A DNA stretch of 38,960 nt, taken from Thermomucor indicae-seudaticae (taxonomy: Eukaryota > Mucoromycota > Mucoromycetes > Mucorales > Lichtheimiaceae). Made by a program: the position numbers and the translations under genes. A model generated the notes under the pieces. That model was not told the DNA's origin. It did not search any database and saw only the letters and a program-made list of their open reading frames with translations. The stretch is from assembly GCA_000787465.1 (NCBI GenBank), contig JSYX01000319.1:1-38960 (forward strand). Direction: 5' to 3'. How positions within the stretch are numbered: position 1 is the stretch's first letter; each line of letters begins with the position of its first letter. This document shows, in pieces, positions 6,608 to 8,904 of the stretch.

Positions 6608-8904
6608 TTATCTACAAGTCGATTTTGCAACCTCCAAATGATCCGTCGTTATCTTTCATGTGTATTGGGATTAGTAGTGTGTGTATATAGCTATGGACAA
6701 GGGGGGATTTACCTGTTGATTATCTAAGCTTTCGCGTAAACACACCATGGCTGCTTCTCGAAAGAGGTTTTCTATTTCAGCACCTAAAGCCAATATCTAT
6801 GTTTGCTAACATGTTTCTAGAGTTCGTTATGGGCCGAAAAGGTTACCTGACCAGCCTTTTGTATCTGTGACTAGTTGATCCTGATAACTAGGACTTATCA
6901 CTACCCGCATCTTTTTGCAAAGTCCTTGAATGATGGCCCGTCGTTGCTGTTGCAAGAAGTCGTGAGTCACGCGTTGTTCCAAGGAGGAGGCACAAACGAA
7001 CCTGATCGTCGGGTAGAGGTATATAAATATGTTCATCGAACCGTCCTGGTCTTAGAATGGCAGGATCGATGACATGGATCCGGTTCGTAGCTAACAAGTA
7101 ACCGCGCGCGCGCTAAGTCAAAGCTTTCCTGTCGTACCGACATGGATGGATTGTCTTTACCTCCCAGGACCATGACATCAATGTGTGCCGTCTCTGGATT
7201 TGATTTGTTGAATAGACCATCCATCGCTAATATCTTTTCTCAGTTTTCCCCTTCTGTCTCTCTACCATCCATGGCGCTTGTTTTTTACCAGTCAAAAAGC
7301 TCGTGACAATTCTATCACTCGTATTCTCGGATGTGGATCGGTCACCTCGTTTGGACAAGAGCATATCGATTTGGTCAATAAACAAAATACATGGTGCATT
7401 CGCACGTGCTTGCGCAAATACTTTGGCGATATTCCTCTCGGATTCGCCAAGGACTTTGGACCGTATTTGAGAGCTCTGAAAGATCGTATAAGCCTCTTTT
7501 TTTCTCAAAACAAAAGAGAGGATGCAGTTACCTCGACAAACATGAAATTGACGCCAGCAGCTGAAGCCAGAGCACAACACAATCTGGTCTTGCCGACACC
7601 AGGTGGACCGTGCACCATGATACCCCGTGGAGGTGTGATGCCTAACATTTTGTATTCTTCTGGATTGTGAAACGGATGGATCACGGATACCTAAAATCAT
7701 AATCTTATAGAGTTTGTGCCCCCTTTTCCTTTAAACAAAGAGAGAGAACTCACAGTGATATCTTGGATAATGGTATCCATGCCGTACAAGTCTGAAAACT
7801 GCACGTCTGGTACCTATACTCTGCATACAGTGAATCATAGTCGGTCTTTATTTCTGTCTTGTTACTTGCCTTGGACGCATATTCACTCATACCAGAAGGT
7901 CGGACCGTCTTGAGCGCGTCTTGGAAATCTTGCCATTGGACGGGAGTAGCAGTTTTGTCTTGACGGATCCGCTGGAGAAGAACTTGAGTGCACAAGCTTT
8001 GAAGGTCGCTTGGCACGAAACCATGCGTGACGCTGGCAACGCGCTTCAAGATGTCCTGTTGAGAGTCCAATGGTAAATCTACATGGTCCTGGTTAGAGAG
8101 TGTGTGTGTGTGTGTGTGTGTGTTTCGCTCTGTCTGTTATGTGCAGCTTACGCTGAGCCAATATCTCTAGAATCTCAAGTCGCTGTTGTGGTGTCTTGAT
8201 TTGTATCTCATAAACCATATCCAGTCGACCTGAACGAAGGAAACATGGATCGATAGCATGAAATCTGCTTGTCACTCCTTGGATTATTTTTAATGTCAAT
8301 CCTCCATCCCATTAGGAGTGGAATTTGATTTTACCAATGATAAAGACACGATGATCGTCGCGCTCCAAGAATGATAGCAACACGGACGCGATACGGACGT
8401 CCAAGTCACCCTTCTTGTCCTTTAATCGCCCCGCCAACAATTCGATCTCGTCCATCACGACAATGGATACAGGTCCCGCGTTGCGCGCTTCTTCCAAGAT
8501 CTCCAATAACCTCGACTCACTTGCACCTTCCTCTATAGATTACGGATAAGTGTTCCTTAAAGAGACGACGAACGGGTGCTTCAATGAACCTGTTTGGTAG
8601 ATATCCGAGCCATTCACAATAAAATAGGGAAACGGTCCGCTTTCTAGGTTGTTATTATCCCCCTTAGTCTTCTTTTCTTTTTTTATTCTTAGAGAGGACT
8701 CATACGTGCAATTGCTAATGCTGTCGCGGTCTTTCCGACGCCTGGCCTTCCATGCAGAAGGACGCCTCGAGGAGGCTTCGTTTGTCTTTTGGCATTCACA
8801 AGCGCGATGGTCTTGATGATCTCACGGATCCACGCTTGGCTGCCGCCAATGCGACGAGTGACGGCATCAATCCACGATTCGATGCCAACAGGATCAGCTG
8901 CCAT
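6608..8904 (-). CDS. Tandem AAA+ ATPase (CDC48/AFG2-like) with degenerate D2 Walker B
   Basis: Thirteen exons on the minus strand join in phase to 520 residues: 8904-8706, 8643-8590, 8532-8335, 8277-8152, 8078-7870, 7813-7754, 7690-7532, 7475-7289, 7226-7161, 7090-7002, 6946-6847, 6783-6713 and 6652-6608. D1 has Walker A GRPGVGKT (52-59) and Walker B VVMDEIE (Glu113). D2 has Walker A GPPGVGKT (310-317), but Walker B reads CILFIDQID, so the catalytic Glu is Gln370. D2 keeps the arginine-finger region ([11 protein letters not shown]) and a C-terminal lid ([15 protein letters not shown]). The intron 7869-7814 appears to be GC-AG. An in-frame TAA just upstream of the ATG supports this start, so the N-terminal substrate domain usual in CDC48/AFG2/NVL is absent or on an undetected exon. 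Closest in style to AFG2/SPATA5 or SPATA5L1 unfoldases; the subfamily is uncertain. Confidence 0.85.
8100..8123. repeat. (TG)n microsatellite inside an AAA+ gene intron
   Basis: A pure TG/CA dinucleotide run lies within the intron 8151-8079 of the AAA+ gene. If translated it would give a spurious Thr-His repeat, which is one reason the intron boundaries at 8152 and 8078 are preferred. Confidence 0.9.

What the first reader, a model, noticed from the sequence alone, without database searches (positions are those of the whole stretch)
7289..7475. AAA+ protein with a natural Glu-to-Gln change in the D2 Walker B motif
The D2 Walker B reads FIDQID, with Gln (CAA, complement of 7371-7373) where the hydrolysis Glu is expected, while D2 Walker A and the arginine-finger region look intact. 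Engineered E-to-Q mutants of this position bind but do not hydrolyse ATP, so nature may have made a permanently ATP-locked D2 ring with D1 as the working motor.
Basis: partly seen in the sequence, partly recalled or inferred. Interest (0 to 1): 0.75.

Follow-up and report, generated by a model that had tools for sequence, protein, structure and literature searches.

The report
Ancient fungal ATPase with locked ring
A Cdc48-like double-ring protein of early-branching fungi carries, in every relative that could be examined, the same single amino-acid change that biochemists make on purpose to stop such rings from burning ATP, so one of its two rings has probably been a fixed ATP-holding platform since early in fungal evolution.

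Summary
The minus strand (8904..6608, 13 exons) encodes an intact 520-residue tandem AAA+ protein whose D2 Walker B reads ILFIDQID (Gln370 = CAA, 7373-7371); D2 P-loop, sensor 1 and arginine fingers are intact. It is no private mutation: the column is Gln in 109 of 109 family rows that cover it (two more are gapped), from Mucorales to chytrids and Blastocladiomycota, against 175 Glu and one Asp in 176 other tandem AAA proteins retrieved (mostly archaeal). The family also lost the aromatic of D2 pore loop 1 (108 of 109; aromatic in 176 of 176 others), yet D2 is better conserved than D1. It is a separate clade (100/100) from Cdc48, NVL, AFG2A and AFG2B, whose likely genes the same genome also holds. 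Best reading: D2 is an ATP-holding, non-hydrolysing, non-threading platform, in logic like NSF D2; D1 keeps its catalytic residues and may be the working ring, less surely in Mucorales, where sensor 1 Asn is often Ser. ATP retention, oligomer state, partners and cellular role are inferred; nothing was measured. Members outside fungi are not excluded, since search lists were capped.

The parts
6608..8904 (-). whole gene, 13 exons: 8904-8706, 8643-8590, 8532-8335, 8277-8152, 8078-7870, 7813-7754, 7690-7532, 7475-7289, 7226-7161, 7090-7002, 6946-6847, 6783-6713, 6652-6608 (stop TAA 6610-6608, read; the script stopped one base short); 520 aa
   Evidence: hand splicing checked by script; product aligns with orthologues, best 60% identity over 98% of the query
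7289..7475 (-). exon 8: D2 from pore loop 1 through Walker B to the helix before sensor 1
   Evidence: equals the finding's coordinates
7371..7373 (-). codon CAA, Gln370, at the place of the D2 Walker B catalytic Glu
   Evidence: Gln in 109 of 109 covering family rows
7365..7382 (-). D2 Walker B core FIDQID
7586..7609 (-). D2 Walker A GPPGVGKT
   Evidence: Lys in 111 of 111 rows
7446..7457 (-). D2 pore loop 1 KVLG (residues 342-345); Val343 where the other tandem AAA proteins retrieved have Trp, Tyr or Phe
   Evidence: position counted from exon 7475-7289
7323..7328 (-). Glu385-Asn386, family mark after Walker B, near where pore loop 2 is expected
   Evidence: 107 of 108 rows each, in none of the 9 reference proteins; of the 176 others 4 have Glu at 385 and 11 Asn at 386; pore loop 2 placement is inference
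7035..7055 (-). D2 arginine fingers LRPGRFD
   Evidence: both Arg in 106 of 106 covering rows
8728..8751 (-). D1 Walker A GRPGVGKT
   Evidence: Lys in 99 of 100 covering rows
8441..8461 (-). D1 Walker B VVMDEIE with the catalytic Glu kept
   Evidence: Glu in 98 of 100 covering rows
8525..8596 (-). D1 pore loop 1 QTEEG (residues 83-87), interrupted by intron 8589-8533; Glu85 where the others mostly have Phe or Tyr
8258..8275 (-). D1 sensor 1 region VTSRFH; Ser154 where most of the family has Asn
   Evidence: Asn 69, Ser 29, Thr 2, Lys 1 of 101 covering rows

Best explanation
This is a distinct Cdc48-type (type II, tandem AAA) ATPase of early-diverging fungi. Its D2 domain binds ATP but hydrolyses it very slowly or not at all, because the water-activating Walker B Glu has been Gln since before the sampled fungal phyla split; D2 has also given up its substrate-gripping pore-loop aromatic. 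D2 therefore most likely works as a permanently ATP-bound platform that holds the hexamer together and signals to D1, the arrangement known from NSF, while D1, which keeps its catalytic Glu and arginine fingers, supplies what ATP-driven motion there is, without classical aromatic threading. Shown: the sequence facts, conservation across the retrieved family and the separate clade. Inferred: the age of the change, ATP retention, hexamer, scaffold role, D1 as motor.
For: Gln370 in 109 of 109 covering family rows with D2 P-loop Lys 111 of 111, arginine fingers 106 of 106 each and sensor 1 Asn 100 of 107: catalysis residue gone, binding and ring-contact residues kept. D2 is the better conserved domain (mean pairwise identity 0.645 against 0.506 for D1; 33 of 205 against 4 of 178 invariant columns; 81 of 111 rows used), so it is under constraint, not decaying. 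D2 pore loop 1 aromatic absent in 108 of 109 rows, present in 176 of 176 others: a ring that does not hydrolyse no longer needs to pull. D1 catalytic Glu in 98 of 100, D1 arginine fingers 101 of 102 and 103 of 103. The AlphaFold2 model of the Phycomyces nitens member is a confident tandem AAA fold (pLDDT 87.7) that matches Rix7, Cdc48/p97, NVL and Drg1. NSF precedent: D2 has much higher ATP affinity (30-40 nM) and mainly holds the hexamer, D1 hydrolyses (PMC11532144, passages). Drg1: the D2 Walker B mutant fails to release Rlp24 and is dominant negative (PMC6920918, passages).
Against: No ATPase, nucleotide-content or oligomer data. D1 may itself be weak in Mucorales (sensor 1 Ser in 29 of 101 covering rows including this one), and two members deviate at the D1 catalytic Glu (P0091 Asn, P0096 Asp). 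The D1 pore loop also lacks an aromatic in most members, so D1 is not an obvious threading motor; on the other hand Rix7 lacks the aromatic motif in D1 and still engages substrate along the whole channel (PMC6920918, passage), so a missing aromatic does not exclude threading. NSF reaches its static D2 by other residues (a sensor 2 Lys, PMC5070193, passages), which this family lacks save one row, P0020, that reads GAK. A homohexamer is assumed.
Confidence: 0.58

Rival explanations
1. It is a regulatory, hydrolysis-dead partner subunit that co-assembles with another tandem AAA protein of the same cell (AFG2A, AFG2B or Cdc48), as AFG2B does with AFG2A in the human 55LCC complex, and tunes or brakes the mixed ring.
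For: Mixed rings exist in this superfamily: SPATA5:SPATA5L1 4:2 with C1orf109-CINP (PMC11055677, passages). This genome encodes AFG2A-like (C434) and AFG2B-like (C387) genes and a C1orf109-like protein (PF15011, 51.3 bits against cut-off 27). A Drg1 D2 Walker B mutant is dominant negative, so a Gln subunit could act as a brake.
Against: No interaction evidence. The family's sister group is unresolved. Mucorales members are too short for an N-domain (lengths), and in human 55LCC the N-domains are needed for association.
Confidence: 0.2
2. D2 still hydrolyses ATP slowly, with the attacking water positioned by Gln or by another residue (for example Glu385), so D2 is a slow timer rather than a locked ring.
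For: Glu385-Asn386 are family marks close after Walker B (107 of 108 each).
Against: Glu385 lies 15 residues on, where pore loop 2 is expected, not near the gamma-phosphate (inference; no distance was measured). In p97 the Walker B Glu (E578) also belongs to the intersubunit signalling network, and E578Q was used to stabilise complexes (PMC10216129, passages).
Confidence: 0.15
3. The gene is simply the fungal AFG2B (SPATA5L1, Spaf-like) with an odd D2.
For: Database names call some members spermatogenesis-associated protein 5. The AU test does not quite reject a clade of the family with AFG2B (p 0.071).
Against: The same genome has another gene (C387) that is sister to human AFG2B at 100/99 while the family forms its own 100/100 clade; human AFG2B D2 reads FLDEID. 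Weak points: human AFG2B is the only other AFG2B row, and in a plain score ranking the C387 product hits p97 before AFG2B.
Confidence: 0.04
4. Sequencing error, private mutation or pseudogene.
For: None found.
Against: Gln in 109 of 109 covering rows from five phyla looked up (Blastocladiomycota, Chytridiomycota, Basidiobolomycota, Kickxellomycota, Glomeromycota) plus Mucoromycota and Mortierellomycota (recalled); intact reading frame with ordinary introns.
Confidence: 0.01

Closest known systems
NSF/Sec18 (type II AAA, SNARE disassembly)
   Same: N-D1-D2 layout; one ring (D2) mainly binds ATP and holds the hexamer, the other (D1) hydrolyses (PMC11532144, passages)
   Different: NSF D2 is kept slow by a sensor 2 Lys and the absence of working arginine fingers; here the arginine fingers are kept, sensor 2 is mostly GAD, GAE or GAQ and the Walker B Glu is replaced. 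NSF D1 has a YVG pore loop (PMC6160233, passages); here the D1 pore loop is mostly acidic
Cdc48/p97 and NVL/Rix7
   Different: D2 is the chief ATPase in Cdc48; here it lacks the catalytic Glu and the aromatic pore loop. The engineered p97 E578Q and the Rix7 D2 Walker B mutant structure 7t3i are laboratory counterparts
AFG2A/Drg1 and AFG2B/SPATA5L1 (55LCC)
   Same: tandem AAA; some members have been named SPATA5-like in databases
   Different: separate clade; both have likely genes of their own in this genome; human AFG2B D2 keeps Glu and human 55LCC needs the Walker B residues for ATPase activity and cell viability (PMC11055677, passages)
'Cdc48-like' type of the 2016 survey PMC5070193
   Same: an extra, long-branched double-ring AAA type reported in basal fungi and other lineages and not in animals (passages)

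Membership tests
Cdc48-type tandem (type II) AAA ATPases | two consecutive AAA modules with AAA lids | tested here: met
   PF00004 two stretches (215.9 bits) and PF17862 two stretches; fold model
Cdc48-type ATPases with two active sites | Walker A, Walker B with catalytic Glu, sensor 1 and arginine fingers in both domains | tested here: not met
   D2 catalytic Glu is Gln in 109 of 109 covering rows; the other D2 motifs are kept. Membership in the superfamily rests on fold and homology, not on this residue
AAA threading unfoldases | aromatic residue in pore loop 1 of the pulling ring | tested here: not met
   D2 position 343 is Val/Ile/Leu in 108 of 109, aromatic in 176 of 176 others; D1 position 85 is Glu/Asp/Asn in 86 of 95 covering rows. 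Caveat: Rix7 D1 lacks the motif and still engages substrate
NSF | D2 sensor 2 with Lys or Arg in the third place | tested here: not met
   GAE here; in the 100 family rows mostly GAD, GAE or GAQ, one row (P0020) GAK; feature taken from PMC5070193 (passages)
NSF | D2 binds ATP tightly and holds the hexamer | not testable with these tools
   needs protein
AFG2B (SPATA5L1, Spaf-like) | groups with animal AFG2B in a tree | tested here: not met
   own clade 100/100; another gene of this genome (C387) groups with human AFG2B 100/99; AU test of family plus AFG2B p 0.071, so not formally rejected
AFG2A (SPATA5, Drg1) | groups with AFG2A in a tree | tested here: not met
   this genome's C434 gene groups with fish AFG2A (99/91), the family does not; a clade of the family with AFG2A and AFG2B together is not rejected, p 0.374
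Cdc48-like of PMC5070193 | groups with the sequences so named in 2016 | not testable with these tools
Cdc48-like of PMC5070193 | occurs in basal fungi and not in animals | tested here: inconclusive
   108 of the 110 retrieved members carry an organism name and all 108 are fungi; P0014 and P0057 have none; but each list was cut at 120 rows

The most novel reading that the evidence does not exclude
A separate Cdc48-type subfamily, fixed before the sampled fungal phyla diverged, in which evolution installed and kept the textbook Walker B Glu-to-Gln trap together with removal of the pore-loop aromatic, turning the usual main motor ring into an ATP-locked clamp or scaffold: a natural long-term version of the experimental substrate-trap mutant.
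Probability: 0.5. Interest if true: 0.85.

Novelty: new variant of a known kind. Interest (0 to 1): 0.72.

Why it matters
The Glu-to-Gln Walker B change is the standard tool for freezing AAA+ rings, and the D2 Walker B mutant of Drg1 is dominant negative. A gene family that has kept the change through early fungal history would show that a hydrolysis-dead D2 can be the working state, would give a second, independent solution to the NSF problem of making one ring static, and offers a natural protein for testing what ATP binding without hydrolysis does in a double ring. It is directly testable with one purified protein.

Tried and rejected
Rejected: that the gene is AFG2B. I held this after the first search because of names and architecture, and dropped it when the genome census showed a separate AFG2B-like gene at C387 and the tree split them. 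The AFG2B identity of C387 rests on the tree, in which human AFG2B is the only other AFG2B row, and on shared motifs; a raw PDB ranking of its product puts p97 above AFG2B.

Rejected: error or pseudogene.

Led little further: a search with the chytrid member P0096 was flooded by CDC48, mostly archaeal, and added one orthologue, P0121; a search on D1 plus linker of a family consensus added nine, P0239-P0247. No named non-fungal member appeared in the 120 rows shown per search, but each search scored only about 8,000 candidates and showed 120, so absence outside fungi is not proven. The sister group could not be resolved: family with Cdc48 p 0.358, with AFG2A+B p 0.374, with NVL in the best tree at support 29/18. 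NSF, Pex1 and Pex6 were not put in the tree. None of the 60 best PDB chains for this protein is named NSF, Pex1 or Pex6 (the chain called vesicle-fusing ATPase, 9ox9, is titled S. mansoni p97); 305 sequences matched and 60 were shown, so this is no proof. Paper searches (the last two returned no paper) showed no description of a naturally fixed Walker B Gln in a tandem AAA protein, nor of this fungal family beyond the Cdc48-like remark of PMC5070193; I judged from listings, abstract starts and the passages named, and most subscription papers are not in that library.

Rows dropped before counts: and 41 rows with a gap at a column are left out of that column's count (for the Gln column P0069 and P0109). 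In one search, 81 of 111 rows with near-full D1 and D2 were used for the identity figures. The 176 comparison proteins are the non-family rows returned, mostly archaeal. The split between family and others was made by rank, identity and fungal names after the alignment had been seen; 11 family rows are in the tree and 43 in that, not all 111. Some members (for example P0078, P0093, P0121) are partial gene models.

Full report
What is there. The minus strand of the window at 8904..6608 encodes a tandem AAA+ protein. I spliced it by hand and checked it by script: 13 exons, 12 introns of 55 to 73 bases, eleven GT-AG and one GC-AG (7869-7814), 520 residues, no internal stop. The finding's coordinates 7475-7289 are exon 8. 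In it the D2 Walker B reads ILFIDQIDM; the residue in the place of the catalytic Glu is Gln370, codon CAA at 7373-7371. D2 Walker A (GPPGVGKT), sensor 1 (ATN) and arginine fingers (LRPGRFD) are intact; D1 has [15 protein letters not shown] and LRSGRLD. Pfam finds two AAA and two AAA lid stretches.

Is it real and more than chance. A protein search gave full-length orthologues, the best at 60% identity over 98% of the query. I counted 110 retrieved family members plus this one; they were told from the other rows by rank, identity and fungal names. At the D2 Walker B column 109 of 109 rows that cover it are Gln; two rows are gapped there (P0069, P0109). The rows come from Mucorales, Umbelopsis, Endogone, Mortierella relatives, Glomeromycota, Calcarisporiella, Basidiobolus, Dimargaris (Kickxellomycota), Powellomyces, Fimicolochytrium and Thoreauomyces (Chytridiomycota) and Paraphysoderma (Blastocladiomycota) (source names; lineages of five species checked, the others recalled). 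Among the 176 other tandem AAA proteins that the same searches returned, the column is Glu in 175 and Asp in 1, and the D1 column is Glu in 176. That comparison set is mostly archaeal CDC48 with a few animal and plant proteins. So the change is a fixed, old family trait and not a read error; its dating before the split of the sampled phyla assumes vertical descent.

D2 is constrained, not decaying. Over the 81 of 111 rows with near-full domains the mean pairwise identity is 0.645 in D2 and 0.506 in D1; 33 of 205 D2 columns and 4 of 178 D1 columns are invariant, and Gln370 is among the invariant ones together with P-loop Gly and Lys, the Walker B Asp and both arginine fingers. Over all rows D2 P-loop Lys is kept in 111 of 111, arginine fingers in 106 of 106 and 106 of 106, sensor 1 Asn in 100 of 107. 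Two D2 features have changed together: the catalytic Glu, and the aromatic residue of pore loop 1, which is Val, Ile or Leu in 108 of 109 rows (Tyr in P0091) but Trp, Tyr or Phe in 176 of 176 others. A further family mark is a Glu-Asn pair 15 residues after Gln370 (107 of 108 each; among the 176 others 4 have that Glu and 11 that Asn).

D1. The catalytic Glu is kept in 98 of 100 covering rows (P0091 Asn, P0096 Asp), the P-loop Lys in 99 of 100, the arginine fingers in 101 of 102 and 103 of 103. Against a strong D1 motor: sensor 1 is Asn in only 69 of 101 rows and Ser in 29, including this protein; and the pore-loop place that is Phe or Tyr in 155 of the 176 others is Glu, Asp or Asn in 86 of 95 covering family rows.

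How it most likely works. In AAA+ proteins the Walker B Glu activates the water (PMC10216129, passages, which describes it for dynein), and a D2 Walker B mutant of Drg1 fails to release its substrate and is dominant negative (PMC6920918, passages). A protein with Gln there and an otherwise intact pocket should hold ATP in D2. In NSF one ring does just that: D2 binds ATP with 30-40 nM affinity and mainly holds the hexamer while D1 hydrolyses (PMC11532144, passages), and the NSF D2 ring stays nearly six-fold symmetric while D1 moves (PMC6160233, passages). The simplest reading is that this family reached the same division of labour by another change. The joint loss of the D2 aromatic fits, since a ring that cannot step need not grip; but Rix7 engages substrate along the whole channel although its D1 lacks the aromatic motif, so threading is not excluded by this alone. 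What D1 does is open; it may drive a non-threading rearrangement, or be slow. The main rival is that the protein is a dead or braking subunit in a mixed ring with AFG2A or AFG2B; this genome has likely genes for both and a C1orf109-like protein (PF15011), parts of the human 55LCC complex (PMC11055677, passages), but nothing links the present protein to them.

Novelty. Searches of the open paper library showed no report of this change or of a function for this family. Individual AAA modules without a working Walker B are known, for example in Rea1 (PMC6920918, passage) and in Pex1 and Pex6 D1, and NSF D2 motifs have degenerated (PMC5070193, passages). A family-wide, exact Glu-to-Gln swap in an otherwise conserved D2 of a Cdc48-type protein is, as far as these searches go, undescribed. 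I file it as a new variant of a known kind.

Noticed in passing
G000 contig C188, locus L037 about 1773-2392 (+): A C1orf109-like (AIRIM, PF15011) gene; with AFG2A-like (C434) and AFG2B-like (C387) genes this fungus seems to hold three of the four parts of the human 55LCC complex, of which yeast is said to keep only the SPATA5 orthologue Drg1. CINP was not searched.
   Followed up: partly
locus L032 (C387), AFG2B-like gene: Its D2 Walker B reads FLDETEA: the catalytic Glu is kept but the following Ile-Asp is Thr-Glu; D2 P-loop is GPPGCSKT.
   Followed up: no
human AFG2B, PDB 8rhn_O: The D2 P-loop reads GPPGCAKT, with Ala where the third Gly of GxxGxGK stands; AFG2B D2 may be unusual in animals in another way.
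   Followed up: no
family lengths: Mucorales and Umbelopsis members are 489-552 residues and too short for the N-domain that Mortierella relatives, most Glomeromycota, Basidiobolus and chytrid members have; a few other lineages are short too.
   Followed up: partly
window 7869-7814 and 8151-8079 (-): GC-AG intron in the gene; another intron contains a CA repeat.
   Followed up: no
window 4755-6511 (+): F-box-like (PF12937) and leucine-rich-repeat (LRR_4) reading frames, perhaps one gene, convergent with the AAA gene and about 100 bases from its end; resembles GRR1 (recalled).
   Followed up: no
window 10800-11520 (-): GDT1 family divalent cation/proton antiporter stretch (PF01169), the next annotated-looking gene upstream.
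   Followed up: no
window 20927-23178 (-): Pieces of an ATR kinase gene (M-HEAT and FAT domains).
   Followed up: no
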